DNA of 64,000 nucleotides from NCBI RefSeq assembly GCF_006171285.1, contig NZ_CP040888.1, positions 62,001-126,000 of the forward strand. The letters run 5' to 3'. A model generated the notes under the pieces. It was not told the origin of the DNA and searched no databases. It saw only the letters and a list, made by a program, of their open reading frames with translations. The DNA comes from Leclercia adecarboxylata (lineage in GTDB: Bacteria; Pseudomonadota; Gammaproteobacteria; Enterobacterales; Enterobacteriaceae). Made by a program: the position numbers and the translations under genes. Below, one piece after another: positions 8,700-51,507 of this stretch. Within the stretch, counting starts at the first letter, position 1; every line of letters begins with the position of its first letter.

Positions 8700-9557
8700 T
8701 TAATTTGTCTCAAATGGATTTTTTAAGAGAGGTTCAACGCTTTGGTTCAACCAGTAGTCGAAATCTTTTGGAATGCCATTACCAGCCAAACCATCCTGTC
8801 TGACAACTGAAGGTACACCCTGCAATTTATAAATTCCTGCGAGCATCAATGACGCTACCAAAGGTTCCGCCGGACATTCTTCTGCTTCTTTTTGAGAGAG
8901 CAATCTTTTTTCAATGTCGGATTTGCTTCCCATTAGCCAACGAAGAATATCGAGGTTGTTTATTTTTCCTTTTTCTTTACTACACCAGAGCCTTCTAAGC
9001 TCTTCTTTTGGCTCACCGGGTGAGGGAACTAAAACAATATCTATCCGATACTTGTCCCGATCTGCATAGAATTTCTTAACAAGTTCCATGCAACCGTCAC
9101 AATCAAGTGTTATGAAAATGGCTGCTTGTCTTTTAAGCTTTGAATTTCCCAGAGGAATGGACGCTACAGTTTCCAGAGGGAAGGGGGCCTCATCAAGACT
9201 AATAAAATAGGAATTCCTGATTTCTTCTACAGTCAGAACAGGTTTACGTTTAATTACATCAACAAGGCTTCCCCCAGTAAGGGAGTATCGGCCATCGGTC
9301 GTTACTGCCATTAGCTGCGAACGTTCGTCCTGAAAGAGGTATAGCCCACCAGAAGGAATGTATATGGCATCCTTAGGTTTATATCCTTTCATTTTTGATA
9401 ACACACCCGAGATCTGACTGGGTGAAACGCCACCTTCCTTTGCCTTTGCCATTAACGCAGCAGCATCACTATTAGTTAGGACCTGCTCTGAAGCATAAGT
9501 GACCGTATTCGCCATAATGGCGAAAGCCGCCATTAAAGGGAAAAGTAACTTTTTCAC
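8700..9557 (-). CDS. DsbC-like periplasmic thiol-disulfide protein of the transfer cluster
   Basis: From a GTG start the protein has 285 residues and begins with a signal peptide (VKKLLFPLMAAFAIMANTVT, then YAS). An N-terminal DsbC-type dimerisation-like part is followed by a thioredoxin-like fold with a CxxC motif, LDCDGCMEL, and a later WCSKEKGK segment as in DsbC/DsbG. Such proteins correct disulfide bonds in pilus components. I reject longer starts because they overlap the upstream gene by over 100 bp. The GTG has an AGAGGG ribosome site nine bases before it. Codons 2-6 contain a copy of the palindrome AAAAGTWACTTTT. The CDGC active site differs from the usual CGYC of DsbC. Confidence 0.75.
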   Translation of the reverse strand: MKKLLFPLMAAFAIMANTVTYASEQVLTNSDAAALMAKAKEGGVSPSQISGVLSKMKGYKPKDAIYIPSGGLYLFQDERSQLMAVTTDGRYSLTGGSLVDVIKRKPVLTVEEIRNSYFISLDEAPFPLETVASIPLGNSKLKRQAAIFITLDCDGCMELVKKFYADRDKYRIDIVLVPSPGEPKEELRRLWCSKEKGKINNLDILRWLMGSKSDIEKRLLSQKEAEECPAEPLVASLMLAGIYKLQGVPSVVRQDGLAGNGIPKDFDYWLNQSVEPLLKNPFETN

Positions 9558-9570
9558 TATTGGGTGCCCT

Positions 9571-10053
9571 CTACTTCTTTGCATTATAAGAACTTGATTG
9601 TACCGCTTCAGAGCTATCTTCAAGTTCCATATAAGTGACGATTTCAACACTATCCGGTACAGTAACGGCAAGCGTTGCATCAATAATTAAATAGCCACGG
9701 TCACGGTAGATCTTCATTAATGTTCTGAAATATTCTTCGAATTGAGATCTATCATTGTCAGCAGTACGGCCTCCGTGATGCTTGAAAAATTCCTTACGTA
9801 ATTCAGGCATGTCAAGCACTGCAATCTTGTACGAAGGCTGGGATTGTTTATTGAAGTAATCGTAAACATTCATAAAGCCTTTATAACCATAAATAATGAC
9901 CAATACGGCAAAGGCGAAGAAAAATAAATACTTCAATATTTTTTCAATATCAATTTCGAAGGTAATTTTTTTTGTTGTCCTTTCTCGCACCATTTTTTTA
10001 GTGATTTCAGGTCCAGCTGATTCAGGCGATTCTTTTTTTTCTAAACTATCCAT
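9571..10053 (-). CDS. TrbI-like single-pass inner-membrane transfer protein
   Basis: This 160-residue protein has a charged cytoplasmic start, one membrane helix (about 42-60, KYLFFFAFAVLVIIYGY) and a periplasmic tail. The tail pattern (KIAVLDMPELRKEF, then RGYLIIDATLAVTVPDSVEI) resembles F-type TrbI, which modulates pilus extension. The similarity is in topology and a few positions only, so the name is an inference. It lies between trhB and the DsbC-like gene with 7-13 bp gaps, so it is clearly part of the operon. Confidence 0.55.
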   Translation of the reverse strand: MDSLEKKESPESAGPEITKKMVRERTTKKITFEIDIEKILKYLFFFAFAVLVIIYGYKGFMNVYDYFNKQSQPSYKIAVLDMPELRKEFFKHHGGRTADNDRSQFEEYFRTLMKIYRDRGYLIIDATLAVTVPDSVEIVTYMELEDSSEAVQSSSYNAKK

Positions 10054-10060
10054 TTAAACC

Positions 10061-11416: not shown

Positions 11417-11867
11417 GATTAGCTCCACTTGTAGGTTTCTGGAATCGTTTAATTTTTAGATTTCGTTCGCTGTCAGACATCTGAGGAACGATATAGGGTT
11501 CACCTGCTCTGGCCCAGTTTTCACGAACAGATGGATGATTCATTTCAGCTTTATCTATCTGGCTCGTTCTAGATATTTCATGTTTGTAATTAGGTTCCAA
11601 AACGTTACTTTTGTGATAGTCAAAAGCATTCTCCTCATTAATATTGCCCTCTCCTACAAATTTATCAATAAGAGTTGGATCGTTCATTATTACTGTCTGA
11701 ACGGGAAAAGCGTTACTGCCATCTTCGATACTAATGGATGCGTCCGGAACGATTAATACACTCCTTTTTGGTATATATTCTGACCTGTAGTAAAAGCTGG
11801 TTAAAGCAAATACGACAAAACCAATCACGGTGGCCCCAAGCAGAGCAGGCAAAGTAACTTTTCCCAT
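11406..11867 (-). CDS. Unknown inner-membrane protein of the transfer cluster
   Basis: This 153-residue protein has one N-terminal membrane segment (about 8-26, ALLGATVIGFVVFALTSFY) and a soluble, probably periplasmic, remainder without a motif I know. It sits between trhK and trhB, where F plasmids have no gene of this kind but may carry traP further along, so it may be a TraP-like accessory. That is a guess from position and topology. It starts 1 bp after the trhK stop region and overlaps trhB. Codons 3-6 contain the palindromic motif AAAGTWACTTTT. Confidence 0.7.
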   Translation of the reverse strand: MGKVTLPALLGATVIGFVVFALTSFYYRSEYIPKRSVLIVPDASISIEDGSNAFPVQTVIMNDPTLIDKFVGEGNINEENAFDYHKSNVLEPNYKHEISRTSQIDKAEMNHPSVRENWARAGEPYIVPQMSDSERNLKIKRFQKPTSGANHGH

Positions 11868-11868
11868 A

Positions 11869-13143
11869 TTATTTTCTGATTAGACTTGGTCTGGTTGTAA
11901 CCCGGGCCTCGCGTTCCTTGAACAATTTATCCCGGACTATGTAAAGCTCTGTTTCTTCTCCCGGTTGCAGGTATGCTTTATCAAATAAAGCACTTGCAAT
12001 AACGCCTTCTGCCATACACTGCTGATCAGCAACGATTTGACCGTATGGTTTATCGTTTTTCACAAGAATTACATCAATAAGTTCACGTGAGCCAACCAGT
12101 CTCTGACCGAGCTTTGCATACATATTAAAGTTACATGGTGACTGCTCTGGCGCAGGAATACGAGAAAGTCGGTCCTGTTGTAAACTGAATCCTGAAGGGA
12201 CCTCACCAAGAGCCACAGGAGTCAATAAATCAATGATTCTTTGTTTATGATCGTCTTGTTTTGGATCCGTTGGAGCCAGTTCTTCTGACTGGGAGCGGGC
12301 CAACATTTCCTCATAGTTTTGCTTATCCAATGAGGTTTCACGTTTGGCTTGCATAGATGGGCTTAAAGATGTAGTAACTGAAATCATCGCACCGGGAACA
12401 TCAAGCGGTACCAGGGTCAGGTTATAGGTCGATTCAGGTACCTGATCTTCAGACAACATAATCCCGATTGGTTTATCGGTATTAGTTGAAATAAAGACAT
12501 CGCCACCATTAACAAATATGCTTGCCTCTTCAGCAGGGGTAGAAGTACTGACAGAAGCATTCTTGAAGCTGGTCGATATTCTGTTTTGAAGTCCTCGTGA
12601 AACTGGCAGTACCACATTCCCACCAGGCGGCACATTTACACGCTGAACTTCTTTATATCGGTTACGAGCTTCGACATAAAGTTCATCGGCTTTTGACGTG
12701 GCGGTCGCATTGGTTGCATTCTGCTGGGAAGAGGTACCTGTTGGTCTCCCATAGCTATCAATTGCACCAGATCGGGTCTGTGCGTCAAATCCGGGGAGAC
12801 TAGGATTATTTGATAATGCTCCAGTAATAGCGCTTACCGCAGGCGAAGCATTGCTGGCTGGGGAAAGTTGCACGGTAGGGAGATCAGTTGTAGGTTTTTG
12901 TCCCTGCGCATTACCGGCTTCACTAAGGTTTGTTTGTGCACCTGACTGTTCAGAACCAGCTTGACCCGGAATAATGGCTTTTGCAGCTCCATTCTGAAAT
13001 CCGTCAGCACCAACTGGCATTACAACCGGGTTATTAATTGTTGCTGGCAATTGGTATTCTTCAGCGATTACGCAGTTCGAAGTCGTGAGCATGATCAATG
13101 CTGTAATTGCGTTGAAGCCTAAGCCCTTTTTTTTAATCATCAC
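11869..13143 (-). CDS. trhK: TrhK/TraK-family secretin-like outer-membrane ring protein
   Basis: This 424-residue protein has a signal peptide (ALIMLTTSNCVIAEE, cleavage near residue 27), then an Ala/Ser/Gln-rich low-complexity stretch (about 45-140) and the TraK domain (about 165-420), with conserved-looking beta segments such as GNVVLPVSRGLQNRI and RLVGSRELIDVILVKND. TraK rings bind TraB and TraV in the outer membrane. It is longer than F TraK (about 240) because of the N-terminal linker, as is usual for IncHI TrhK. Its start overlaps the trhE stop by 4 bp. Confidence 0.88.
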   Translation of the reverse strand: MMIKKKGLGFNAITALIMLTTSNCVIAEEYQLPATINNPVVMPVGADGFQNGAAKAIIPGQAGSEQSGAQTNLSEAGNAQGQKPTTDLPTVQLSPASNASPAVSAITGALSNNPSLPGFDAQTRSGAIDSYGRPTGTSSQQNATNATATSKADELYVEARNRYKEVQRVNVPPGGNVVLPVSRGLQNRISTSFKNASVSTSTPAEEASIFVNGGDVFISTNTDKPIGIMLSEDQVPESTYNLTLVPLDVPGAMISVTTSLSPSMQAKRETSLDKQNYEEMLARSQSEELAPTDPKQDDHKQRIIDLLTPVALGEVPSGFSLQQDRLSRIPAPEQSPCNFNMYAKLGQRLVGSRELIDVILVKNDKPYGQIVADQQCMAEGVIASALFDKAYLQPGEETELYIVRDKLFKEREARVTTRPSLIRK

Positions 13144-13928
13144 TTGTTACCTGTAGACGGTGGCGGATTATCCAGCGTTGCCAGTTGCTCTTTGCCGTTT
13201 ATCGTAATTTTTTTAATATTCGGTGTTCCGGAATATTGATTTACATATGCAATTCTTGGGCGACCATTTTTCATCCCGAGAACCCATTCATAAGTCCATT
13301 TCGATGATTCAGTTTTGTCCGGAACATTTACAAGTCGAGTCGTTTTGGTACCCCAGACATAGACCATGTCATTTTTTGGATCAAAGTAAATATCATTAGG
13401 CTTAAAGGTCTGCTCAACACCACGAGCCTGCATGATATTTATCTGCTCCTGTAAAGACTCACTCGTTTTAGCCTGTAGTTCAGGTGAAAGGGCATCGAGG
13501 ACATAGGCCGTCACAAAGGAAATATTAGTTGGATTAATATTCCCTAAAAGGGTACTAAAAAAGAGAGCCCATTGTGTTTTATAAGATTCCGATGCTTTGT
13601 TACCAACAACCGTGATCTCTTCATTCATGTTTGGAGGGGTAACAATCGTCACTGGGTCAGTGAAAAAAAGAATCTTTGCAACCAATAACCCAATGACGGC
13701 TATTGAAACAGTATTAATGCGGATAAGTTTTGTATCACGATTAATCAGGGCGCTGTATGTAATTCCAGCACCTGACGCTTCAGCTTGTGGGCTAAATCGT
13801 TTTTTAATGTCCAAAAAACGTCCCTTAGCACTTTCATCTTTCTTTACGTATGACTGTTCAAGATCACCGTTTTCATCCTTTTTAGATTTTTTGAAAAAAG
13901 GGATGTTAATGCCACTTAGCATTTTCAT
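13140..13928 (-). CDS. trhE: TrhE/TraE-family inner-membrane pilus assembly protein
   Basis: This 262-residue protein has a longer-than-F cytoplasmic N-terminus, one membrane helix (about 72-90, INTVSIAVIGLLVAKILFF) and a periplasmic domain with the TraE phrases ATRGVEQ-like QARGVEQTF and a YVWGTKTTRLV strand. TraE/VirB8-type proteins recruit pilin and core proteins at the inner membrane. A GGAG site precedes the ATG at 13928. It is 11 bp from trhL and overlaps trhK, all in the same direction. Confidence 0.88.
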   Translation of the reverse strand: MKMLSGINIPFFKKSKKDENGDLEQSYVKKDESAKGRFLDIKKRFSPQAEASGAGITYSALINRDTKLIRINTVSIAVIGLLVAKILFFTDPVTIVTPPNMNEEITVVGNKASESYKTQWALFFSTLLGNINPTNISFVTAYVLDALSPELQAKTSESLQEQINIMQARGVEQTFKPNDIYFDPKNDMVYVWGTKTTRLVNVPDKTESSKWTYEWVLGMKNGRPRIAYVNQYSGTPNIKKITINGKEQLATLDNPPPSTGNK

Positions 13929-13939
13929 TCATAGCTCCA

Positions 13940-14257
13940 TCAAGAATACAAATCTCTGATAAATGGATCGTTGAAATAACGGCTACTAAAAACTGCTTTA
14001 CCTGGCAAAAAACCGAGCCACCAGAGTTTGTGTTTTAGCAATCCTCTTATTCCTGACTCAGCTGCTTTGTTATACGCAATCCAATACACAACCGCTGCTA
14101 CAACAGAAAACCCGAAGCATTCGAAGATATTCCCAAATGCAACCAGAATGAATGCAAGCCCTAATTTTTTGGCATCCCAAAACAAAATCAGTAGAGGCAT
14201 GTTGATCCTGAAAGGGAATCTATAGGTATGCTGAGGAACGTCGTTCTGCTTACTCAT
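13940..14257 (-). CDS. trhL: TrhL/TraL-family pilus assembly protein
   Basis: This 105-residue protein (start MSKQNDV) carries the TraL pattern: a short N-terminus rich in Pro and Arg (TYRFPFRINMP), then two close membrane helices (about 30-72), and a basic tail ending near a short acidic motif. TraL acts near TraE and TraC at the inner membrane. I chose the inner ATG at 14257 because CTCTGGA precedes it. The upstream extension is unlike the family. Confidence 0.85.
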   Translation of the reverse strand: MSKQNDVPQHTYRFPFRINMPLLILFWDAKKLGLAFILVAFGNIFECFGFSVVAAVVYWIAYNKAAESGIRGLLKHKLWWLGFLPGKAVFSSRYFNDPFIRDLYS

Positions 14258-14307
14258 TAAAAATCCAGAGAGGGGGATGAACCCCCTCATGCATGATTAA
14301 CAATAAA

Positions 14308-14661
14308 TTACAGCGGTACGCCAGCATCCATAAAGGTGCTGATAATTTTCTCGCCGTTGGCCATTACCAGCATCATGAATAATGAAACCAGTGCCAGGCC
14401 CGGGTTAGGCTTAAGGACAGAGAAATATACGCTTGAGATCAACATCGCGGCTGCCAGAATTTTGCCCGGAGCTCCAGTCATACTTTCACTCATGTATGAC
14501 CAAATATCTCCCAGTGCCCCATCATCTGAACCCGCATATGCCAGACCGCAAAAAAGCACGGTCAGCAGAACAAACAAAATCACTTTTGCGCTTTTTGTTT
14601 TAAAAAGTGCAGCCGTGTTAGATTTCTTTTCACTAAGGCCAATATTTAAAGAAAGTTCCAT
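14308..14661 (-). CDS. trhA: TrhA, H-pilus pilin precursor
   Basis: This 117-residue prepilin starts MELSLN, after a GGAG site. A long signal region ends in LFCGLAYA, with likely cleavage before GSDDGALG. The mature part is about 68 residues with two hydrophobic helices (KILAAAMLISSVYF and LALVSLFMMLVMA) separated by a short positive loop (KPNPG), the layout of F/H pilins. As first gene of the trh operon, its promoter must lie in the 14662-15087 region. The final residues are GVPL. Confidence 0.88.
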   Translation of the reverse strand: MELSLNIGLSEKKSNTAALFKTKSAKVILFVLLTVLFCGLAYAGSDDGALGDIWSYMSESMTGAPGKILAAAMLISSVYFSVLKPNPGLALVSLFMMLVMANGEKIISTFMDAGVPL

Positions 14662-15087
14662 AATTACTCCGTGTAGATTTGAGTTCACGTAAACGCGAAT
14701 GAATAATACTTTTTTATTCCGATCCTTCCGTTCGCATAAACCCCCTTTTTTTAACGTTTAGCGATTGGTGAATTTTTAAGCAAAGGGCCTAAAGCATAAT
14801 CTTTGAAAGGTACCAGTGAACGCTTAGTAAAAGTTTGAAAGAGGGGAGGGGGTAAGATTACGTTAAGCTCAATCCTGAAGCTGATGAGACTCCTCAAGCA
14901 TAAAAGTCACTTTTGATGGTTTGAAAAGCTCTAACTAGATATCGGGCAGGTAACTAAGCTTCATATCTAATCTTTTTTGTTCCCTTATTATCTATCTCTT
15001 GATTCTGAGAAGGCCGCATATCACTGTGCTCCCTGGTTCGGCAACTATCAGTTGGAGAAACTACATACAATCCTCGGGCCGGTGCGT
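14662..15087. promoter_or_regulatory. Leader of the trh operon, gene-free
   Basis: About 425 bp upstream of trhA. It must contain the trh promoter, but I cannot pin down -35/-10 boxes with confidence. At 14902-14914 it holds AAAAGTCACTTTT, a one-base variant of the plasmid-wide palindrome. The rest is AT-rich with no gene. Confidence 0.45.
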
Positions 15088-15670
15088 CATTCATCTAAAT
15101 GCCTTTTACACCTCTGGGCGTGAGTGGGACTTTGTCTTGTCCATACGAACATCATTCATTCGAATGCTTTTGGCCAATGCTATTTAAGCAAATGCTTTCT
15201 GGCTGAGTCCTTTTGCGAATGAGTCTTTGATATAACTGCATGAATTTTGGGTTGTTTGGTGTACTAACAAAACAAAGGCATTTCTTTGAATGCCATTGGA
15301 GTTGTGATGCTTCTGATATTTTTTTGATCTCATATCAAGCACATAGTCCTTCTGATGCCCAATGTCATAGATGTCTTGGACCATTCTCGCTCTTAACAAA
15401 GCTGAACTGTGTGTCATTCGACCTAATGCCATTCACCAAAATGCCTTTTTATACCACTGCATAGCTATGCTCGGGATACAGTGGCAAACAAAAGCATTTC
15501 AATGAATGAATTTTTGGGATACCGACATCAAAAGCATTTGTATGAATGTAAGAGGCGTAATCCACAAAAGGCATTCACGTGAATAGAGTGCGCACGAAAC
15601 CATCTTGCTCAACGGCATTTAATGAATGGGCTAGCATGTACGCTTGAGTCAGAAAGGCATACAGATGAAT
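15088..15670. repeat. RepHIA iterons, 3' side (both orientations)
   Basis: About eight to ten copies of a roughly 20-bp element, consensus CATTCAnnnAAATGCnTTTT, occur downstream of the rep gene. Forward copies lie at 15088-15107, 15153-15171 and 15430-15450. Reverse copies lie at 15274-15292, 15490-15508, 15530-15548, 15566-15585, 15614-15628 and 15653-15670. Rep proteins of this family bind such iterons to start and limit replication. A copy of the palindrome AAAAGTTACTTTT lies just after them at 15688-15700. Confidence 0.85.
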
Positions 15671-15809
15671 AGTCAGGAGTTCGTTTGAAAAGTTACTTTT
15701 TTGCACATTAAGCCGAGATGTAAGACCAGTAGTAAAAGAAGCACTAAGCATAGCACTGATAAATAACTTATTTTTCAGCAGGTTATAACCAGTGCATACC
15801 AGATAGCTT

Positions 15810-17161: not shown

Positions 17162-18214
17162 ATGAACAACAGCAAACATACAGTCATTGAAGTGGATACT
17201 AATCTAGTTGAAATTGAAAAGGGATTTAATCCCCGAGAGGCGGTAATCGGAGATTTGTGTTACGAACAAGAACCTGTCAAATCGATGATTGTGTCAATCA
17301 AACAAGCCTTTAAGGAAGGAAGGCAGGTTGATATGATCAAGGTCGTAAAAAGAAAAGGTAAATATTTAGTTCGTCAAGGTCATACTCGTTTTCATGGCTT
17401 AAAATTAGCAATTTCTGAAGGTGCTAATATTCCAAAATTATCTGTTATCTTAATCGATTATAAAAACGAAATTGAAGAATACCTTGAGAACCTCGATGGT
17501 AACAGAAGCAATGGGCTAAATCCGGTTGGGCAAGCTCATGCATTAGCTCATGCTGTTAGTCTCGGGTATTCGGTTGAAGAACTAGCAATGCGATATCAAC
17601 GATCAACTACCGCAATTCGTAATATGCTAAAAATCCTTGATATGCCATTAGAGCTTCAACGTTTGATTAGCCTAAATCTAATCAAAAAAACGCTCGCCAT
17701 TGAAATAATGTTAAAATATTCCAACGATCACAAAATGGTTTTAAAACATATAGAAGGTTTCTTACCTGGCGTTAAGAATATTGAGACTACAACGAGCAAA
17801 ATTGTAGGCATACCTGAACACAATGCAGCTGGAGCAGGACCAGACACCTTAAATAAAGGCGGACCAGAAAAGAAAAATTCGGCAGTCACACGTAAGACTT
17901 TGGGTATTAAGCGCCTCTCGCATAAGAAAACAGAACGGCTAAAATCTGAATTTCTTGAGCTTGTGGAAAGTACACATACGGAATCTATAACGAATACTCA
18001 AACAGAACTAAAATTTGGTAGAGATAGTGCACACTTGTTCAAAAATGTTGATAGTAAAAATGTAATATTTTCTGATGATGGTGTTCAAATAATCTTGAAT
18101 GATGAAAAGCTAAATATTTTATTGTCTTTACTTAACGACGAAAATACAGCAATCATTCTTTCTAAACCAAAATTAGAAGAGCTTCTGGAAATTCGAGATC
18201 TCCTTAAGGAATAA
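17162..18214 (+). CDS. Orphan ParB-like nuclease/CTPase-domain DNA-binding protein
   Basis: This 350-residue protein has the ParB N-terminal fold: an arginine motif GFNPRE (21-26) and a nucleotide-binding motif VRQGHTRFHG around residue 73 (in place of GERR). A helix-turn-helix near 136-160 (SVEELAMRYQRSTTAIRNML) follows. The C-terminal half is Lys-rich and Ser/Thr-rich, possibly for dimerisation. A strong ribosome site (AGGAGGA) precedes the ATG. No ParA-type ATPase lies next to it, so a role in partition is not shown. It could equally be a regulator that uses the same fold. It starts a three-gene set with 66-aa and 238-aa proteins. Confidence 0.8.
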   Translation: MNNSKHTVIEVDTNLVEIEKGFNPREAVIGDLCYEQEPVKSMIVSIKQAFKEGRQVDMIKVVKRKGKYLVRQGHTRFHGLKLAISEGANIPKLSVILIDYKNEIEEYLENLDGNRSNGLNPVGQAHALAHAVSLGYSVEELAMRYQRSTTAIRNMLKILDMPLELQRLISLNLIKKTLAIEIMLKYSNDHKMVLKHIEGFLPGVKNIETTTSKIVGIPEHNAAGAGPDTLNKGGPEKKNSAVTRKTLGIKRLSHKKTERLKSEFLELVESTHTESITNTQTELKFGRDSAHLFKNVDSKNVIFSDDGVQIILNDEKLNILLSLLNDENTAIILSKPKLEELLEIRDLLKE

Positions 18215-19384: not shown

Positions 19385-20236
19385 ATGGAGATGGACTTTA
19401 AAATGCACAATGATCTGGGTCTCGGTTTCATTTGTAAAAATGCAAGAACATCGTCAAAGCCAACGTTAAGAAAAGTTACTTTTCCGGTAAGCGCATATGA
19501 AACGTCTAAGCTTTCTTTAACCGGTTTTCAATGCCCCACAGCCTGCCGATTTCCTTTTTTTGTGCTATGCATGATAATCCATAACCATCTTTCGTCTGCA
19601 TGCCCTATCAACCAAAATGAATGTTCAAATCATATATCGCAATTTTCTATCGACATTAAAGTACAAGATTGGCTTAGCCGTTCAAGAGTAGCGTTTATTG
19701 ATTTCCATAATCTAAGAAATACAGATAAAACCACATTAATAACAGTGGAACATCTTGAAGCTTTACTTACTGTTATGTCAACTACTCTTGTCGCTTACGC
19801 TCCATATTCAAAAAAGAGACTTAACTTTAGCTTTCTAAATTCATTTACTTTGTCTAAAACTTCTCAAAGTTACACATTAACTTTCCCGGTAGTTCTCAGT
19901 CCGCTTTTAGATGCTCTTGGCGGTTTCATTCAGGAATGCATAACCGAAAAATTGTTAAAACGACGAAATTCGAATTTCATGGTTTACGAGTATCTTAAAC
20001 GTTCAGGCCAGAGCTCTCATAAAGTGGAGGACATTAATAACGACTTACAGCTTAAAACTCTAAATATAAGACTTATGAGCGTCCTTACTGGGCTTTCTCA
20101 GCAAGGACTCATTTCATTTATTTGCGAAGGAAAGAGGGGCGACCGGAGAATAGAAGAGCTTCAGTTTATACCTTATGTTCAACGAACTCACCCTGAGGTA
20201 TTAACTTTTCAGGAATGGATTAGCCCCGTTGATTAG
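19385..20236 (+). CDS. Unknown protein, possible winged-helix DNA-binding part
   Basis: A 283-residue protein from the ATG at 19385 (AAAGG site; nearby ATG and GTG codons in frame are alternatives). The last 90 residues (KRRNSNFMVYEYLKRSG ... LTGLSQQGLISFICEGKRG) have a winged-helix look. The N-terminal part is Cys-rich with no known motif. Codons near 19471 contain the AAAAGTTACTTTT palindrome and encode KVTFP. It runs toward the Dam gene and stops 8 bp before that gene's stop. Confidence 0.6.
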   Translation: MEMDFKMHNDLGLGFICKNARTSSKPTLRKVTFPVSAYETSKLSLTGFQCPTACRFPFFVLCMIIHNHLSSACPINQNECSNHISQFSIDIKVQDWLSRSRVAFIDFHNLRNTDKTTLITVEHLEALLTVMSTTLVAYAPYSKKRLNFSFLNSFTLSKTSQSYTLTFPVVLSPLLDALGGFIQECITEKLLKRRNSNFMVYEYLKRSGQSSHKVEDINNDLQLKTLNIRLMSVLTGLSQQGLISFICEGKRGDRRIEELQFIPYVQRTHPEVLTFQEWISPVD

Positions 20237-21078: not shown

Positions 21079-21426
21079 AGTGTCTATACCTGAGAGAGAA
21101 ATTTAGGTGCTGGTATCGTACCTAACCACGGGCTTTAACTAATAACTTAGGGAGCAAAAAAAAGTTGTTTAAGACGCACAGTTTTGACTTTCAGCATTGC
21201 GGATTTATAAGATTTTTCCTCACTGATACCTGAACTTTATGTTTTGGATTTATGTCTTTGTTTATGAAGCGATTTTGATGCCATCACAAGAAATGGGGAG
21301 CCCTCTTTTTTTGTGAAAAATCAGAATAGGCTCAAAAAGTACCTTTTTTGCGAAAAATTATGGATTTTTTTTTCGGTAGTATCCCCGCTACGCAGAAAGT
21401 AAGCAGAAAAATGTAACGGAGCCCCT
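21079..21426. other. Gene-free divergent region
   Basis: About 350 bp between the divergent dam-like and ParB-like genes; it must hold promoters for both. It is AT-rich, with runs of A/T near 21150 and 21300-21375. At 21334-21350 there is AAAAAGTACCTTTTTT, a weak relative of the plasmid-wide palindrome. I see no small gene here. Confidence 0.5.
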
Positions 21427-22590
21427 ATGAGTGTTTTACTGACAGAACCTACACAGCAAGCTAATGACAAGGTCTTTAAAACGGCCCATGTTGCCTTTTC
21501 AGTAGTTACTGGCACAGGTCGTTACGTCACTGGGCTTAAACAGTTCCGTGATGCAAACCCTGAACTTTGTACTGAAGTAAGTGACCAGAAAGCATGGGCT
21601 ATCCACCCTTCAGTAATTCAGGTCACGCCAGGCTTCAACTCCCGCGAAATGGGAATGGGTGACGATTACTATAAGCTCCCTGAGGTTGAAGAACACATCT
21701 ACAACATCAAGAATGCCTACATTCGAGGTGACTATGTAGACCCTATCCGAGTACGTGTCATTGATGGGGTACCTTTTGTTCGCCAGGGGCACTGCCGTTT
21801 AAAAGCCGCAATGATGGCATGTGATGAAGATCATGACATCACAATCCTTTGCGTTGAGATTAAAGAAGATGAAATTGGCTGTGAGCTCGCGACCATTGAT
21901 GGTAACCGTGGTCTTGCGCTTTCTCCTGTTGCGCTTGGCGAGTCCTATCGTCGCCTACATTCTCTTGCTGGCTGGTCACTCGAACGAATTGCTCAACGTG
22001 AAAATAAAAGCCCGACGACCATCAGTTCTCTTATCCGCCTGACAACCTGTTCTGTTGTTATCAAGAAATGGATTCATGCTGACGCTATTTCGTATGTTAA
22101 CGTGCTTTCACTGATCGATGAGCTCGGTGAAACAGAAGCAATTTCACGTATCAAGAAGATGATCGCGGAACTTGAGCAGGCCGATGCGAATGGCATCACG
22201 GTGAAAAAAACCCAACATGGTCAGGTACGAGTCAGACCTTCAGACTTCAAGCCAGCACGGATTCCGCCGGTTATTGCCACAAAAGCCGTAGAAGGCGTCA
22301 AACTCATCACCACCAGCTTATTACAGAAACTGGGGGATATTGAATTGCCGGAGATGACAGATTCAAGTGCTGACGAAGAAATCAACATTACGTTGAACCG
22401 CAGTACTCTGGAGATGCTGAGAAATCTTTCAAAAGAGATCACAGAATCAGAGAACAAGCAGCTTCGCCGTGCGGAGAATCGTCAGGCAAAACTTAATGGT
22501 GAGAAGCCAAAATACCCACGTAAAAAAAATGCTAAGAAGGCAGGGGAAGAGACCGATCAGGATACTGACCCACAGCCGGACGCAGAATAA
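21427..22590 (+). CDS. Second orphan ParB-like DNA-binding protein
   Basis: This 387-residue protein shares the key points of the first ParB-like protein: GFNSRE (69-74), VRQGHCRLKA (118-127) and, after NRGLALSPVALGES, a helix-turn-helix (WSLERIAQRENKSPTTISSL, about 175-195). The tail is long and Lys/Asp-rich (KYPRKKNAKKAGEE ... DPQPDAE). Again no ParA gene is adjacent. Its DNA is richer in G+C than that of the first copy, so the two may have separate origins. A terminator follows. Confidence 0.82.
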   Translation: MSVLLTEPTQQANDKVFKTAHVAFSVVTGTGRYVTGLKQFRDANPELCTEVSDQKAWAIHPSVIQVTPGFNSREMGMGDDYYKLPEVEEHIYNIKNAYIRGDYVDPIRVRVIDGVPFVRQGHCRLKAAMMACDEDHDITILCVEIKEDEIGCELATIDGNRGLALSPVALGESYRRLHSLAGWSLERIAQRENKSPTTISSLIRLTTCSVVIKKWIHADAISYVNVLSLIDELGETEAISRIKKMIAELEQADANGITVKKTQHGQVRVRPSDFKPARIPPVIATKAVEGVKLITTSLLQKLGDIELPEMTDSSADEEINITLNRSTLEMLRNLSKEITESENKQLRRAENRQAKLNGEKPKYPRKKNAKKAGEETDQDTDPQPDAE

Positions 22591-26158: not shown

Positions 26159-26530
26159 TGGGTTTCCTCAACCTAGAAGTGATGGTTACCCTGTTATTTT
26201 ACATAAATTTGACTCAACAGATGCTTTTAAAATCTCGCTTCCTTGAATTTAAAAACATATCAGCACAATTGGCAAACATAAAGGAGCAGCGTCTATCAAA
26301 AGTTACTTTTATGATTGGTTGAATACTCATTTTGAAGGCTAAAATCCAAAAAAGTGGGTACAAAAAGTTACTTTTGCGTCATCCAGATGCACTGCCGCCA
26401 TTTTGCATTCTGTACGTTGGTTGCTTTCTCACTTGATGTCTCTTTTAACAGGCAAATTATCACTTTATCCGACCGGACCTTGTAGGCTGAATCCGTAGAA
26501 TAAGGCTATAACCTATTCCCGGAGCATCAT
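26159..26530. promoter_or_regulatory. Upstream region of the first Ig-like gene with two palindromes
   Basis: It holds two exact copies of AAAAGTTACTTTT (26298-26310 and 26363-26375), 65 bp apart, about 160-230 bp before the start codon. Spacing near six helical turns would let a bound protein bridge the sites. No gene is seen here. Confidence 0.65.
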
Positions 26531-32735: not shown

Positions 32736-33260
32736 ACAGCAGCGTAACACCTCTAAGCTCACTCCTGTTGTCAGGGGTTAGGGTATTGAGTCTCTACCGT
32801 CGTCAGTGTTTCTGAGACACCAGTATTGCAGATCACTACAATTGTCACTTAAGTATCGACGGGGGAATAGATGCAAGTGACTGGCTAACCAGTACCAGTT
32901 TAGATTCAAAACGATCCCATCTTTGTGGATGCACTTGAGTAAGCTCGTATGACGATATGTCAGAGAAGTGACAACGGGAGTGAGTTGCCGGACTCACTAC
33001 CGTTGTCATCCCCGGTTGAAGGAAGAGGATCCCCGGGGCTGTATATTTACCGGGTATCCTTACTCAAGGGTTTCGACACTCACTCCCATTGTCGTAATCA
33101 ACGAGTGTGCATTGTCTTTTAAAAGCATCGCTGGAAACGTACGATTAAAGTAACTTTTCTTTCGGTTCTTCCTTGCGAATCTCTGAAGACGTACTGGCTG
33201 ATCGGAGTCAAGGAGGGCAGTAAAATTGAAGCCGTCAGTTTTACTGTCGGCTCCGGGTAG
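32736..33260. repeat. Decayed tail of the iteron field
   Basis: Isolated, partly worn iterons (about 32745-32850) are followed by a well-kept facing pair at 32967-33010 and a single at about 33078-33093. A palindrome AAAGTAACTTTT lies at 33147-33158, about 100 bp past the end of the convergent Ig-like gene. No gene is seen. Confidence 0.65.
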
Positions 33261-35681
33261 TTACTTCAACTCGTCGATCTGAATCATGAATTCTGAGGTG
33301 CCAACTTTCCCATTTTCGGAAGGATAAACGGGTAACAGAAGATTATCCCCCTGGCCCATATCTATTTGCACCTCAACTGACTCACCTGGAGCCGCCTGTG
33401 CCCCGTTAAATTTAATACCGAAGGCTGCATCCTTCCGCACAGTCAGCGTTGCGTTCTGGACCCCTTTAGCAATTTCTCCATTTGTCTTACGCAGAACGTT
33501 AGTGGACAGGTACGCAAGGGGTACGCCATCTGTCGTTTTGAGAGGCGAACTGACCGATAATGTGCGTAGATTATGTAACTGCACAAGGTTATTCGGTAGA
33601 TAACTGAACTTCTGAGTATAGGTTTTGGTATTCGACTGACTATCGGCAACTGTTACGCTAATTGAATAATTTTCAGATGGTTCGAAATTTGGGAACAGCC
33701 TCGGATACTCAGGCATGTATGTATCTTTGCCTGCCGGTGACCACGTAAGCTCAACGTTATCAGCTGTGGGGCCACCTACGAGCTGAAGACGGGTTATCCT
33801 CGGGGTTGTCAGATTATCTGCCAGAGCGATCCTGAGGTTCTCCAGGCCGTACACTACCGTATCGTCTTTTACCGGCTTTCCGTCGAATGTTATGGCCACT
33901 GTCGGAGGAGTGTTATCCAGAGCAATTTCTCCGAAAGTTTTATTGGTCTGGTTCTGGAAGAAGTCCCTGATGTTGACCTCAACGTTGTATTTTCCTTCAG
34001 ACTGACGGGATAAATCATAAGCAATCGTGTAGTTACCTGAGATACGAGATTTGATTACGCCTGTGGGTGACATCCGGGTACCGGTGTTCTTATCGGAAAG
34101 ATAAAATTCCCTCAATGAGACCGAGTCGAACCAGTTACCATCGCCTTCAAGTGACGCCAGTACATCCAGCTGCTTGTTAGTCTCGTCATATGATATCGAG
34201 TTTATTACCGGCAGTTGTTTATTGTTCCAGCGTGTCATAATCCATTGCTCAGACCGCAAAATGGGATTGCTGATGCTGCGAACGAAGTAAAGGATCCTAT
34301 TGTAGCCCTGGGTACCCAAGGCCATATCAAACGTCTCAGGCGCTTCACACGAGGTTTTTCCTGCCGGAATGGTGCAGGTCGCCTTACCGCCGATCTCTTG
34401 TGCAAAGGGCCGGGCTTCAACGTTAAAACGAAGTCGGGAAATTTTAATTGGCAGTCGTGATGAAGCCACACTCTCAAAATCCTTCCACTTAACCCAGTTC
34501 CCCTTATCATCGAGGAAATCTACCCAGGTACCCGCAAATGCAGGCGTTTGGTTTGCAGATGGGTTTAGAACGAGGCTGTATGACGGATAATACCCTCCCC
34601 ACTGGCCAAAGTTCGCCATACGAGCCATATCCCCATTAATTGAGCCATAGGGAAGAGTCATTTCAACATAAGCATAAGTGCTGTCTACAGCTATCTCTTT
34701 GGGGGCGGAATATTGATTGATGAACTGAAGCCCACCTTCTGAATAAGCACGGTAGTTAGATTTTGGGATCCGGTAGACTAATCGAATAGGGTTTTCGTTA
34801 ACGACCATACCGGCTTTGTAAGCCGGATAATTAGAAACCCCGGGTACGACGCTGGAAGACGTATTTGGATCATGAACGGCCCACAGTGTCATCTCACCCA
34901 GCGTGTTGTCGTAGCGAAATTTTTGAGTTGGCAGCGTTCGGCTATTACCTGCGTTATCGAAGATAACAACTTTTGCAGTAAAGTCTTCATCCAGGTTGCT
35001 GTCTGGTATTCCGGTTCCCTTAACTGAATTCTTAGAGTAAGTGTGGTACATCTTTTGGCCGGATACGTCATACTGCATCTGTGTAGTGCTGTAGAGGCTA
35101 CCGTCCTGCCTGTAAATATATATTAGGCCCTTATCAATACCATTTGCATCACTTACGCCCGAAGAGGTGAAGTCATACTGCCCCGTTGCCTCTAATCCAA
35201 GCTTCCACACGTCACCAGCGGTAGAGCCAGAACCAGTATTAGCGGTAAGAGCATTTGCCGCTGGAGGGGTGACATCAATTAGCCAGTTATAGTTATAGGT
35301 CGCTACAGGCTTCTGATTGAGATCTAACACGTTTATCTGAACGACAAATTTGCCTTCACCCAAAGCAGGCAAAGTTACTTTTTTGCCGTAGAACTCACTA
35401 CCGTCAGCAGCTGTTAGTCGGTCTGATACACCCGTCCGTGTAGTCGTAGTATTAAGAATGACAGTTCCAGTGTCTTTCGTGACTTTGACATTAACGAAAC
35501 GATCAAGACCTGAAATAAGTGTCAAAGTTACCGGTGATGCCGGATTAAGCATAAGACGAGAAGACGGGGCGTGGATCTCAATACCGTTCGTGTCTTTAAA
35601 GGCCGATTCATATATCTGAGCTGGGGCCTGAACAGACATACCGAGTCCGGCTACAGCAGTAATAAAAGCGAGATGTTTCAT
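33261..35681 (-). CDS. Large secreted Ig-like-domain protein (copy 2)
   Basis: This 806-residue paralogue of the 26531 protein has a signal peptide (MKHLAFITAVAGLGMSVQ, cleaved near APA-Q). Matching blocks include NPASPVTLTLISGLDRFV, LDNTPPTVAITFDGKP, YGLENLRIALADNL and the C-terminal LTVRKDAAFGIKFNG. A GGGGAA site precedes the ATG. It is the mirror partner of copy 1 across the second replicon (both point toward the iterons). Codons for GKKVTLPALGEG carry the AAAGTTACTTTT palindrome at 35371. Function is inferred from IncHI relatives that help conjugation. Confidence 0.8.
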   Translation of the reverse strand: MKHLAFITAVAGLGMSVQAPAQIYESAFKDTNGIEIHAPSSRLMLNPASPVTLTLISGLDRFVNVKVTKDTGTVILNTTTTRTGVSDRLTAADGSEFYGKKVTLPALGEGKFVVQINVLDLNQKPVATYNYNWLIDVTPPAANALTANTGSGSTAGDVWKLGLEATGQYDFTSSGVSDANGIDKGLIYIYRQDGSLYSTTQMQYDVSGQKMYHTYSKNSVKGTGIPDSNLDEDFTAKVVIFDNAGNSRTLPTQKFRYDNTLGEMTLWAVHDPNTSSSVVPGVSNYPAYKAGMVVNENPIRLVYRIPKSNYRAYSEGGLQFINQYSAPKEIAVDSTYAYVEMTLPYGSINGDMARMANFGQWGGYYPSYSLVLNPSANQTPAFAGTWVDFLDDKGNWVKWKDFESVASSRLPIKISRLRFNVEARPFAQEIGGKATCTIPAGKTSCEAPETFDMALGTQGYNRILYFVRSISNPILRSEQWIMTRWNNKQLPVINSISYDETNKQLDVLASLEGDGNWFDSVSLREFYLSDKNTGTRMSPTGVIKSRISGNYTIAYDLSRQSEGKYNVEVNIRDFFQNQTNKTFGEIALDNTPPTVAITFDGKPVKDDTVVYGLENLRIALADNLTTPRITRLQLVGGPTADNVELTWSPAGKDTYMPEYPRLFPNFEPSENYSISVTVADSQSNTKTYTQKFSYLPNNLVQLHNLRTLSVSSPLKTTDGVPLAYLSTNVLRKTNGEIAKGVQNATLTVRKDAAFGIKFNGAQAAPGESVEVQIDMGQGDNLLLPVYPSENGKVGTSEFMIQIDELK

Positions 35682-41607: not shown

Positions 41608-42009
41608 GGCCATTTTTACTGGCAAGATATCTGTATACCGGAGTCTTTAGAGTACGTTCTAATGGCTCCGGATTATTAATACTGTTTTACTCATGCAATA
41701 AAAAGCAAACCAAAATTCTTTCGCTAATTCATTTTTAAATGCTCAAATCATTAAATGTAAGGAGCGTTATTTATCAATAGGTATGGCGTTCTTAATGGCT
41801 ATTAAGCTAGTTCTGCTTTCGCTTGCTTCTGGAAATTAGGGAAACCTAATTTTACCCTATCAAAAAGTAACTTTTCTGGTTTTGTTGCATTCACGTAAAC
41901 AAAAAAAGTCCCGCCGGGCAGAAAAGAAAAACATCAAAAATAGCTATTTTCCCGAAAAGATCACGAACACTGAAAAAGTATCATGGGGAACCTGATCAGG
42001 AGACAACCC
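41608..42009. promoter_or_regulatory. Upstream region of the third Ig-like gene with one palindrome
   Basis: About 400 bp without a gene. AAAAGTAACTTTT lies at 41863-41875, about 135 bp before the start codon, the same general location as in front of Ig-like copy 1. A CCGGAG/CTCCGG pair near 41639-41668 could form a weak hairpin after the preceding gene. Confidence 0.6.
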
Positions 42010-46840: not shown

Positions 46841-47245
46841 TATCTGAGCTGAAACCGGTAGGCCAGGGAAGGCAACCGGGAAAATGCAATTTAACCTGAT
46901 CCTATACCTACGACTATCTTTATCCACTTATAATAGCCTCACCAAATTATAATGCCCGATCACCGCATTTGCTTAAACCTCACATATTCTTCTTATGCTT
47001 CCCCTGATAATCTACGACCGAAAGACAAAGGAAAGTGAATACGAAATAAGATTTATGAGCACATAAAAGTTACTTTTCCTTGGTGGCACATCACAAACAT
47101 TGTGGGTTTCATAATCCTTTTTGTTATTTAAAAAGGATGTGTTCAATTCTAATTAAAGGTGGTATTTTTTTTGAAAGTTTGCTGGGAGGTTATTAGCTGG
47201 GGGGATGGGTAACAGTATAATAAGTACAGATGAAAAGGAGGTTTT
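46841..47245. other. Gene-free region with one palindrome
   Basis: About 400 bp, AT-rich. AAAAGTTACTTTT lies at 47065-47077. A strong ribosome site (AAAAGGAGG) for the next gene ends it. No other feature is clear. Confidence 0.5.
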
Positions 47246-48207: not shown

Positions 48208-48465
48208 ATGTCTGAAAAACACTTTATCGTTAAAATCCAGAACCGAAACGGCGACCATGAGAATAGCTATGTTCGGTTACTCGTCAGCGATTGTGAGAAA
48301 AATGCTTGCCAGACGGCACTCATTTCAGAGTGCCATGGCGAGCTTGAACAGCTGAGTTTTGAAGACGGTGGGGTTTACGACTACAACGGCGAAAATCACT
48401 ACAGTGTCAGGAGCTGCGTGGAGGTTGCTCCAGAAGACGTTGCAACTTTGCAACGCTTCCTTTAA
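48208..48465 (+). CDS. Unknown 85-residue protein
   Basis: From ATG 48208 (GGAGG five bases before; a GTG at 48193 lies upstream of that site) this is an acidic protein with several Cys (SDCEKNACQ, SECHGE, RSCVE). No known family. A GGGCGTCC/GGATGCCC hairpin lies about 25 bp past the stop. Confidence 0.6.
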   Translation: MSEKHFIVKIQNRNGDHENSYVRLLVSDCEKNACQTALISECHGELEQLSFEDGGVYDYNGENHYSVRSCVEVAPEDVATLQRFL

Positions 48466-48620
48466 CACCTGCGACATTTGATTAAATATCGGGCGTCCGC
48501 TACAGGATGCCCGTGATTTAAACGATTCCTCAAAGATCGCTGTCACTCCTGATAACTGTATTAAGAGCAGGTTTGTGATAGGTTCAGCGTAACAACATTA
48601 CTGGAATTTTGGTTGCCTTG

Positions 48621-49229: not shown

Positions 49230-49399
49230 GTACAACTTTTGAAGGTGTCTCCGCTAAAGAAGACTGGGTCTCTTTGCGCATGCCCAGCTGTGCTGCATGA
49301 CCTGACAAAGCCTATAAATAAACAGATCGGTTTGATTTAGTAATCCCCCTTCCAACCATCAGGCCGATATTTAAACTGCATCTCCATTAAGGATGGCTG

Positions 49400-50650
49400 A
49401 TGAGCACGATTTCTACGGATTTAATTGCACGGATCTACGCAGCCTCCGAATTGCCGTTGAGCAACGACGAGCTTTATCGCGAAGTGCAGCGTGAAACTGG
49501 CATGTCGGATGCCGAATTGCACGAACTGAAAGAATTTGGGTCAGATAAAACCAGAACCAGCGGCGTCAAACACAAAGTACGCTGGTTTCAGCAGACTCTT
49601 CGGCAGGCCGGAGTCATCGAACGCGTTCCAGAAAAACGGGGCGTCTGGAGATACTCCTCTAAGACGAAAACAAACCTACACGAGTCATGGGAAAAGCTCT
49701 GTGTTGTCGGTTTCTCAACTTCTCTTGGGGCATCGGTTTTTGGAAACGCCTATGCCTTCTTCAGCAATATCACAGAGCAAATTCATCTTTGCCTGACCTC
49801 GCCGCCTTACCTCCTTCGAAATTCAAGAGACTACGGGCATGGCGGGGGGCGTGGCGAGCAGGTTTATATTGACTGGCTTCTGCGTATCCTCGAACCGATC
49901 GTGAAACAGCTTGTACCCGGCGCAAGTGTGGCATTGAATATCACTCAAGATAGCTTTAATAGGGGCAGGCCTTCACGTTCTCTGTATCTGGAGCGTCTGA
50001 CACTGGCATTATGTGACAAGCTGGGGCTTGAGCTCATGGACAGGCTTCAGTGGGTGAATCGCAGTAAGCCCCCATCGCCAACGCACTGGGCATGTAAGCA
50101 ACGAGTGCAGCTCTGCTCATCGTATGAGCCTGTGCTGTGGTTTACCAATGATGCGAGTAAGGTTCGTTCAAACAACTTACGTGTACTGCAACCGCATTCA
50201 GAGCAGCATCTTAAATTGCAGGCAGCAGGCGGTGAAAATCGCACGACCTTTTATGGTGATGGGGCGTACCAGCTTAAAAGCGGATCCTTTGGAAATAAAA
50301 CAGAAGGAACGATCCCCAAAAATACTTTGTTTTACGGCAATAGCTGCGCTGATACGAGATTTTGCCATTCCATTGCCCGCGAGCTAGGTTTTCCGCTGCA
50401 TGGTGCAACGTCTCCTACCAGGCTTGCAGCGTTTCTGATTGAGTTTTTGACAGAGCCGGGAGATCTTGTTGTAGATCCCTTCGCTGGCCTGCATAAAGTT
50501 CCCATCGCAGCCGAGCGACTTGGCAGACGTTGGCTGGCGACGGACAAAATCATGGAATGGCTGGCGATTTCCCGAAACCTTTTTACGGCCGCACCGGGAT
50601 ATAAGAGTAACCCCATGCTGGACGAGCTCGCCGAACTGTATCGGGCTTAA
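49400..50650 (+). CDS. Beta-class DNA methyltransferase
   Basis: A 416-residue protein with the catalytic TSPPY (133-137) before the SAM motif DPFAG (about 359-363), the order of beta-class enzymes. TSPPY is typical of N4-cytosine and some N6-adenine enzymes. The first 90 residues look like a winged helix (SNDELYREVQRETGMSDAEL). No restriction endonuclease is nearby, so it is an orphan methylase. The target site is unknown. AAGGATGG precedes the ATG. Confidence 0.88.
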   Translation: MSTISTDLIARIYAASELPLSNDELYREVQRETGMSDAELHELKEFGSDKTRTSGVKHKVRWFQQTLRQAGVIERVPEKRGVWRYSSKTKTNLHESWEKLCVVGFSTSLGASVFGNAYAFFSNITEQIHLCLTSPPYLLRNSRDYGHGGGRGEQVYIDWLLRILEPIVKQLVPGASVALNITQDSFNRGRPSRSLYLERLTLALCDKLGLELMDRLQWVNRSKPPSPTHWACKQRVQLCSSYEPVLWFTNDASKVRSNNLRVLQPHSEQHLKLQAAGGENRTTFYGDGAYQLKSGSFGNKTEGTIPKNTLFYGNSCADTRFCHSIARELGFPLHGATSPTRLAAFLIEFLTEPGDLVVDPFAGLHKVPIAAERLGRRWLATDKIMEWLAISRNLFTAAPGYKSNPMLDELAELYRA

Positions 50651-50944
50651 TGCAAGTTAACGGTTTTGATAAAGTGGTTTGAAGCGACAAGCGGTTTATT
50701 CATTTTGCATTGTTTCTACCATAAAATGACAATATTAACGGCTTAGCATACGCCGCAGAGATAATTAGGGTGCCATTCATTTCCGGTTGTCTGTATTAAC
50801 GAGTGTATTCAATATTCACTTGTTTCTCCGATATAGACCCAACAAAAAAAACTGATGGTTGTGATACAGAACTTGTTGAATTAACATCCGGTACATTAAC
50901 TATATTGGTAATTTAGACGGTTTCTAAATTAAAGGTGGACAGAT

Positions 50945-51265
50945 ATGAAGTCAGATACAGAAATGGTTTCTCCTATCGAGTTGCACATTGGCGATCATGT
51001 CCAGCGGCATGGTGCTTTATTTGAGGTTATGCATATTGTTGAATCCGAATGCGATATTCCCGGCGGCATCCGGGTAGCAGCATGCATTTCACGGGTTATC
51101 GGTGACGTTACGGGCAATATTCCTCGTGGTTGGCTGGAAACACCGAAGCGTATGGCTGAGCGAGGAGTTAAGTGGGCGACGAGTCTGCCTGAGGGGCTTT
51201 ACTTTAACATCCAGGGGAACGCACATGCGAAAGTAAGCCGGGTTATTCGTAATGTGACTAATTGA
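50945..51265 (+). CDS. Unknown 106-residue protein
   Basis: A small soluble protein (ELHIGDHVQRHGALFEVMHI) with a mostly beta layout, possibly an SH3-like or KOW-like barrel. That is an impression only. AAAGGTGG precedes the ATG. The region 50651-50944 before it has no gene. A palindrome AAAAGTTACTTTT follows at 51289. Confidence 0.6.
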   Translation: MKSDTEMVSPIELHIGDHVQRHGALFEVMHIVESECDIPGGIRVAACISRVIGDVTGNIPRGWLETPKRMAERGVKWATSLPEGLYFNIQGNAHAKVSRVIRNVTN

Positions 51266-51507
51266 AACTTTTTTCTGAATTGCGGTGTAAAAGTTACTTT
51301 TCACCGCATCGTTTTCCCTAACTACTAAATCAGAGCTTCTCTGAAATAAGCGGATTTAACCGCTAGCGATTTATTCAGGCCATTTTATTCTAATCATTAT
51401 CCTACACTTCAAAAATATTCATTATTTTTTCTTCTGACCTATTAGCCAGAATTCTCGATTCGGTATCATTTACTTACGGTAAATCTTTTGAAAACGAGGT
51501 AAATGGC
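51266..51507. promoter_or_regulatory. Intergenic region with the last palindrome copy
   Basis: AAAAGTTACTTTT lies at 51289-51301, 23 bp past the preceding stop and about 205 bp before the next start. It is the right-most copy of the motif in this window. Confidence 0.55.

What the first reader, a model, noticed from the sequence alone, without database searches (positions are those of the whole stretch)
9541..51301. Plasmid-wide 13-bp palindrome AAAAGTWACTTTT, eleven near-exact copies
Copies (core AAAGTWACTTT) lie at 9541, 11851, 15688, 19471, 26298, 26363, 33147, 35371, 41863, 47065 and 51289, plus a variant AAAAGTCACTTTT at 14902. By simple base counting an 11-base palindrome of this type should appear far less than once in 64 kb. 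Copies are 2-7 kb apart, sit in both intergenic and coding DNA, and are absent from the repeat/IS2 left end and the recombinase/IS right end. The scatter resembles KorB operators on RK2 or dispersed centromere sites, and two ParB-like proteins are encoded on the same DNA.
Basis: partly seen in the sequence, partly recalled or inferred. Interest (0 to 1): 0.88.

Follow-up and report, generated by a model that had tools for sequence, protein, structure and literature searches.

The report
Plasmid-wide docking sites for clamp protein
A large family of drug-resistance plasmids carries the same short mirror-image DNA word dozens of times, even inside genes; it is probably the landing site of an unstudied DNA-clamp protein made by the plasmid, which would make it a plasmid-wide control system hidden in well-known plasmids.

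Summary
AAAGTWACTTT occurs 11 times in the window against 0.09 expected, plus two AAAGTSACTTT copies. The window lies on a 327,617-bp IncHI2 plasmid with 52 copies of AAAGTNACTTT. It is the dominant palindrome in all six HI plasmids enumerated (46-92 copies); six non-HI plasmids have 0-2. Sites are selected as DNA: 24 of 26 alignable R478/R27 sites keep all ten arm bases, 17 of 19 inside genes (background 13%).

Best reading: C is an orphan KorB/ParB-type clamp that represses itself and loads along the backbone. Gaps between convergent genes are about as rich as promoter-bearing gaps (few sites), so plain promoter operators seem insufficient. Binding is inferred, not shown. Closest known: RK2 KorB operators and scattered IncC parS. 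New variant of a known kind.

The parts
9541..9553 (.). site AAAAGTAACTTTT, 89 bp upstream of htdT; arms conserved in R27
11850..11862 (.). site CAAAGTAACTTTT at the 5' end of the htdO coding sequence; 9 of 10 arm bases kept in R27
14902..14914 (.). site with C centre, AAAAGTCACTTTT, intergenic upstream of the hypothetical gene and trhL
15688..15700 (.). site AAAAGTTACTTTT, intergenic, 3' of the RepB-family initiator gene
19471..19483 (.). site AAAAGTTACTTTT inside coding DNA (hypothetical ORF); arms fully conserved in R27
21335..21347 (.). variant site AAAAGTACCTTTT, centre 86 bp upstream of ParB-like gene B; same variant at -86 to -90 in R478, R27 and MF072964
26298..26310 (.). site AAAAGTTACTTTT, first of a doublet (65 bp apart) between divergent genes
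26363..26375 (.). site AAAAGTTACTTTT, second of the doublet
33146..33158 (.). site TAAAGTAACTTTT, intergenic, 3' of an Ig-like gene
35370..35382 (.). site CAAAGTTACTTTT inside the Ig-like gene; arms fully conserved in R27
41863..41875 (.). site AAAAGTAACTTTT, intergenic upstream of an Ig-like gene
47065..47077 (.). site AAAAGTTACTTTT, intergenic
51289..51301 (.). site AAAAGTTACTTTT, intergenic
17162..18214 (+). ParB-like protein A (350 aa); HTH_ParB; close orthologues seen in HI1/HI2 plasmids only
21427..22590 (+). ParB-like protein B (387 aa); HTH_ParB; in all HI subgroups examined
257..2835 (.). tandem array, 249-bp period, about 10.5 copies, on the par1 side of trhC (taken as par1's own centromere); no motif copy in it

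Best explanation
The palindrome AAAGTWACTTT (extended GAAAAGTWACTTTTC) is the recognition site of an IncHI-wide ParB/KorB-like protein, here called C. In R478 it is the gene at 216013-217197; in this plasmid it is C1:174301-175485, outside the window. C is an orphan: no ParA gene is annotated beside it. Proposed working: a C dimer binds a site through its ParB-type HTH, represses its own promoter through 2-5 clustered sites, and loads as a KorB/ParB-type clamp at the 46-92 sites along the backbone, so that most of the backbone lies within a few kilobases of a loading site. The clamp coat then represses and/or organises the plasmid, apart from the separate par1 partition system. Shown by sequence: motif excess, selection on the sites, spread across HI subgroups, site clusters at the C gene; and, by prediction, a KorB-like fold. 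Inferred: that C (not B) is the main binder, autorepression, clamp loading and sliding, and the purpose.
Against: No binding data. B is also in all HI subgroups examined and has sites or a conserved variant at its promoter, and A, B and C occur together in the three motif-rich genomes, so co-occurrence does not single out C. Two motif-bearing HI derivatives (NZ_CP055413, 29 copies; NZ_CP070952, 30 copies) appear to lack C, since the best match there lies in gene B: C is not needed for such replicons to persist. C lacks the KorB Pfam domain, and the CP017986 C protein reaches no Pfam family at E 0.01. Clamp formation and CTP binding are guesses from a predicted fold and one motif. Sites are several times denser between genes than in them (30 of 54 and 22 of 46 sites in about a fifth of the DNA), which an operator model would also give. 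The convergent-gap comparison rests on three sites per plasmid.
Confidence: 0.6

Rival explanations
1. ParB-like protein B (ORF 21427 in the window), alone or with C, is the binder. C and B are paralogues and the C promoter would simply be one of B's targets.
For: B is in all HI subgroups examined. It has two perfect sites upstream in CP017986 and KX839207 and a conserved variant AAAAGTACCTTTT at -86 to -90 in R478, R27 and MF072964. The two HI derivatives that appear to lack C still hold B and 29-30 sites.
Against: B's putative recognition helix changes between HI1/HI2 and HI3/HI5 (S-x-TTI versus SEMAVRQ) while the site stays the same; C keeps H and R. In R478, R27 and MF072964 B's promoter has only imperfect sites, whereas C has 2-5 perfect ones in all five plasmids.
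Confidence: 0.17
2. Ordinary dispersed transcription operators: a KorB-like global repressor acting only at promoters, with no plasmid-wide loading role.
For: Sites from -60 to 200 bp upstream of starts: 27 of 54 (13.6 expected) in R478 and 17 of 46 (11.6) in R27; to 100 bp: 12 (9.2) and 9 (7.3). Clusters at the C and B promoters and in front of the trhL operon in Klebsiella HI-like plasmids.
Against: 24 of 54 and 24 of 46 sites lie inside genes, with two conserved deep in rsp. Gaps between convergent genes are about as rich as the others (4.4 and 8.0 sites per 10 kb), though on only three sites each.
Confidence: 0.17
3. Dispersed centromere (parS) sites of the known par1 ParABS locus.
For: Par1 ParB is in all six HI plasmids searched; the scattered parS of IncC are a precedent (PMC10954446).
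Against: parB1 lies in a site-free gap of 8.9-12.8 kb in six of six plasmids. Tandem palindromic arrays flank parB1 in KX839207 (50 of 53 copies of AACAA-n5-TTGTT), and 249-bp arrays lie by parA1 in R478 and in the window. No site with 0 or 1 core mismatch within 600 bp upstream of parA1 in R478 and R27.
Confidence: 0.05
4. Chance, base composition, a protein motif, or a host-protein or methylation site.
For: Half of the sites lying wholly within genes (12 of 22 and 12 of 23) read KVT[FL] in frame.
Against: 0.09 expected; three frames; only 3 of 55 genome copies lie off the plasmid; an 11-13-bp site is long for a methylase (general knowledge).
Confidence: 0.01

Closest known systems
KorB and its OB operators on IncP plasmid RK2/RP4
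   Same: 13-bp odd palindromes scattered over a conjugative plasmid; ParB-family protein with the same N-terminal and HTH fold (predicted); self-control sites.
   Different: OB is a different sequence (recalled as TTTAGCSGCTAAA; 0 copies on the six HI plasmids), with 12 copies on RP4 (PMC10954446 passage). KorB works with a ParA (IncC) and KorA and has the Pfam KorB domain (partly recalled). C has no annotated ParA beside it and no KorB domain; 46-92 sites, about half inside genes in R478 and R27.
IncC ParB and its 14 scattered parS sites (R55)
   Same: Scattered palindromes in gaps and genes of a MOBH conjugative plasmid, one at the par promoter; found here by the same enumeration.
   Different: Different, even palindrome TTTCACATGTGAAA (0 copies on the six HI plasmids); ParB sits in a parAB operon, has a KorB domain and serves partition. 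In HI, par1 is the ParAB partition locus and has tandem arrays beside it.
Noc and its binding sites in Bacillus
   Same: ParB-family protein binding many dispersed sites (recalled); C's model also matches Noc.
   Different: Noc acts on a chromosome and the membrane (recalled); no such link was tested for C.
Orphan ParB relatives in general
   Same: A survey describes stand-alone ParB relatives, many on plasmids and prophages (PMC12704722, passages read).
   Different: The word IncHI does not occur in its main text; I saw no site set of this kind in the passages.
IncHI par1 ParABS
   Same: ParB-family protein on the same plasmids.
   Different: Local tandem arrays, no shared site.

Membership tests
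KorB/OB system | Scattered odd palindromes of about 13 bp on the plasmid | tested here: met
KorB/OB system | ParB-type N-terminal domain plus HTH in the binder | tested here: met
KorB/OB system | OB sequence TTTAGCSGCTAAA (recalled) | tested here: not met
   0 copies on 6 of 6 HI plasmids
KorB/OB system | KorB domain PF08535 | tested here: not met
   Only HTH_ParB found in R478 and R27 C, nothing in CP017986 C at E 0.01
KorB/OB system | ParA partner gene beside the ParB gene | tested here: not met
   No ParA annotated next to C in R478 or R27 (the gene table is known to be incomplete)
KorB/OB system | CTP-dependent clamp sliding | not testable with these tools
   Only the GxxRxR motif was read
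KorB/OB system | KorA clamp-lock partner | not tested
   none
ParABS centromere of par1 | Sites at or near parAB | tested here: not met
   parB1 in a site-free gap in 6 of 6 plasmids (parA1 extent read from annotation in R478 and R27, estimated in the other four)
IncC scattered parS | Core TTTCACATGTGAAA | tested here: not met
   0 copies on 6 of 6 HI plasmids, 14 on NC_018994; NC_018994 has 0 copies of the HI motif
Noc nucleoid occlusion | Many dispersed sites for a ParA-less ParB relative | tested here: inconclusive
   Sites and ParA-less gene C are there; that C binds them is inferred
Noc nucleoid occlusion | Membrane targeting and division effect | not testable with these tools
   none

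The most novel reading that the evidence does not exclude
IncHI plasmids carry a plasmid-scale chromosome-organising system: an orphan CTP-switched clamp loads at 50-90 sites kept by selection even inside genes, coats the whole backbone but stays away from the par1 centromere, and so condenses, silences or marks the plasmid as a unit, distinct from both partition and promoter control.
Probability: 0.22. Interest if true: 0.87.

Novelty: new variant of a known kind. Interest (0 to 1): 0.74.

Why it matters
IncHI plasmids are major carriers of multidrug resistance; 1,764 of 72,556 plasmid records hold a match covering at least 80% of protein C. A plasmid-wide regulator with about 50-90 conserved sites would be a main control layer of these plasmids that I did not find described, and it makes a cheap test possible: one protein, one 13-bp probe. 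It would also show that a ParA-less ParB relative on a plasmid can own a dispersed site set larger than those of RK2 or IncC.

Tried and rejected
Regular spacing of sites: not found (R478 CV 1.29; R27 CV 0.80, null 0.97, P 0.08). A motif-free gap around par1 as a special feature: present in 6 of 6 plasmids, but larger gaps exist in each, several of them over acquired DNA, so not weighed heavily. The second HI5-like palindrome AACAA-n5-TTGTT as another dispersed site: rejected, 50 of its 53 copies form tandem arrays by parB1. A C-linked dispersed palindrome on the Aeromonas plasmid pMAH4: not seen, 14 of 15 copies of its top palindrome form one tandem cluster. Intermediate C homologues (44-52%) with their DNA: not obtained. 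Genome contigs gave six loci at 100% (four), 64% and 36%, an order-wide search of 394 genomes gave only the own plasmid and one weak match, and two viral-contig scans gave none. Tblastn with two such homologues listed, in the best ten rows each, only plasmids at 45-51% identity to them. The 15-mer in viral contigs: 91 stretches, the 80 listed each with a single site. Literature: exact-letter searches for the motif gave 7 and then 14 papers, none on plasmids by listed title; searches on IncHI with KorB, ParB, palindrome, operator, transfer-regulator or centromere words showed nothing on it in the listings seen. In the R27 expression paper the words palindrom, operator and binding site do not occur in the main text (PMC7366339, term search). 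Most subscription papers are not held, so the R27 and R478 sequence papers were not seen.
Full report
WHAT WAS CLAIMED AND WHAT IS THERE. The window contains AAAGTWACTTT eleven times at the stated places, against a mean of 0.09 in 100 dinucleotide shuffles, plus AAAGTCACTTT at 14903 and AAAGTGACTTT at 42899. Eight of the eleven match the full AAAAGTWACTTTT. The window is C1:62001-126000 of a genome of 5.76 Mb; C1 is 327,617 bp. Its backbone is IncHI2: window 15500-23000 matches 1,118 plasmid records at 95-100% identity, 1,066 of them over at least 80% of the stretch. C1 holds 52 of the 55 copies of AAAGTNACTTT in the genome; the reversed control pattern gives 5 in the genome.

HOW WIDE IT IS. 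Enumerating every palindrome with 5-bp arms and gaps of 0-12 bp, AAAGT-n1-ACTTT is the strongest outlier in each of six HI plasmids: own 52, R478 54, R27 46, NZ_MF072964 49, NZ_CP017986 92, NZ_KX839207 86, each with under one expected. Of 16 whole records counted by pattern, three further HI records have 51 (NZ_CP026242), 87 (NZ_MZ836808) and 51 (CP009883), two reduced HI derivatives 29 and 30, and six non-HI records 0, 0, 0, 2, 1 and 0 (IncC NC_018994, Vibrio rumoiensis, Comamonas, Pseudomonas frederiksbergensis, Delftia, Aeromonas pMAH4); reversed control 0-3. The labels HI3-like and HI5-like for the Klebsiella records are mine, from gene content and recall; PLSDB types NZ_CP017986 IncFIB/IncHI1B, NZ_KX839207 IncU and NZ_MZ836808 IncQ1/IncU. 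Consensus over R478 and R27 sites: GAAAAGTWACTTTTC, with information only in the central 13-15 bp. Over five plasmids there are 327 perfect cores; the commonest one-base variant (AAAGC arm) has 39, with 6 expected.

THE SITES ARE SELECTED AS DNA. R478 and R27 align over 113,353 bases at 75% identity. Of 54 R478 sites, 26 lie fully in aligned DNA; 24 keep all ten arm bases (17 of 19 coding, 7 of 7 intergenic); the two others keep 9 and 7. Other positions keep ten such bases in 12.8% (coding, n=34,550) and 27.8% (intergenic, n=2,991). The same 5-mers outside the motif are kept 66 of 186 (AAAGT) and 55 of 169 (ACTTT) times. Of the 46 R27 sites, 24 are matched to an R478 site; the other 22 were not sorted into unaligned and truly unshared. 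HI3-like versus HI5-like: 61 of 66 alignable sites (of 92) are kept, background 0.21. Of sites lying wholly within a gene (22 in R478, 23 in R27), 12, 6, 4 and 12, 5, 6 start at the first, second and third codon base; the first class reads KVT[FL], so no single peptide explains them all.

WHERE THEY LIE. In R478 30 of 54 and in R27 22 of 46 sites are between genes, though 81% and 80% of the DNA is coding; coding DNA has 1.1 and 1.7 sites per 10 kb. Density per 10 kb is 6.0, 4.4 and 6.6 in tandem, convergent and divergent gaps of R478 and 6.6, 8.0 and 4.4 in R27 (only three convergent sites each), so promoters are not clearly preferred. Large segments with IS, resistance and metal genes have none, for example R478 78.9-112.2 kb and 115.1-149.0 kb. 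Spacing is not regular.

WHICH PROTEIN. R478, R27, NZ_MF072964 and the own plasmid encode three paralogous ParB-like proteins besides Par1 ParB: A (window 17162), B (window 21427) and C (R478 216013-217197, R27 92336-93541, own C1:174301-175485). NZ_CP017986 and NZ_KX839207 have B and C but no close A. Upstream of C there are perfect cores at -96 and -223 (R478), -100 and -218 (R27), -103, -220 and -337 (MF072964), and five between -116 and -570 in both Klebsiella plasmids. B has two perfect cores in the Klebsiella plasmids and the conserved variant AAAAGTACCTTTT at -86 to -90 in R478, R27 and MF072964. A has no perfect core in the three plasmids scanned (one one-mismatch site at -306 in R478), and parA1 has none in the two scanned. 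In C's HTH, H184 and R186 are invariant in 14 of 14 relatives, whereas B's corresponding helix differs between subgroups; which residues touch DNA is my reading. C therefore fits an unchanging site best. Par1 ParB is unlikely: parB1 sits in a site-free gap in 6 of 6 plasmids and has tandem arrays beside it where looked for.

INDEPENDENT CONTROLS. The same enumeration on an IncC plasmid finds TTTCACATGTGAAA 14 times. That is the core of the scattered IncC parS (14 on R55). In that paper three chosen sites, two from the plasmid and one from SGI1, bound ParB in EMSA, while the bare 14-bp core did not (PMC10954446, passages read). Thus a dominant scattered palindrome does mark a ParB-family site in a related case. 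In 246 genomes of the same family, 119 have at least one AAAAGTNACTTTT; only three have more than five (25, 27, 27), and they are the three with a strong C match. Two more genomes with weak C matches (E 1e-4 and 1e-5) have 0 and 1 copies. A and B are present in the three as well, so this supports the HI link rather than C alone.

MECHANISM AND LIMITS. The most likely working is a self-repressing, ParA-less KorB/ParB-type clamp loaded all along the backbone. Shown: sites, selection, distribution, clusters at C; predicted: the fold. Inferred: C as binder, repression, loading and sliding, and purpose. Against it: no binding data; two motif-bearing HI derivatives appear to lack C; B remains a live alternative.

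NOVELTY. Scattered ParB-family sites are known from RK2 and IncC. A set of 46-92 sites, about half inside genes in the two plasmids counted, apparently served by an orphan ParB relative apart from the partition locus, is a new variant. I found no description of it, within the limits of the searches named under Tried and rejected.

Noticed in passing
window 21335-21347: Variant site AAAAGTACCTTTT upstream of B is the same in R478, R27 and MF072964; it may have its own affinity or a different binder.
   Followed up: partly
NZ_CP129673.1 (Comamonas testosteroni plasmid), e.g. 170527 and 171674: TTCGCATGCGAA occurs 10 times, two of them just upstream of a ParB-like gene and of a parA gene: looks like an IncC-type scattered parS set with a changed sequence.
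   Followed up: no
NZ_CP055413.1 and NZ_CP070952.1: HI derivatives that appear to lack gene C yet keep A, B and 29-30 sites: natural losses useful for testing.
   Followed up: partly
window 257-2835; R478 12516-15095: 249-bp tandem repeats beside parA1; about 10.5 copies in the window and two blocks of 4.1 and 4.5 in R478.
   Followed up: no
NZ_CP017986.1: CCCCG-n4-CGGGG palindrome 24 times, far above the 0.1 expected; position not examined.
   Followed up: no
L017 3123-3464 and L024 3118-3464 (Klebsiella HI-like plasmids): Dense cluster of 4 and 5 motif copies within about 350 bp between the traL operon and a divergent gene; HI1/HI2 have two looser sites in the corresponding stretch.
   Followed up: partly
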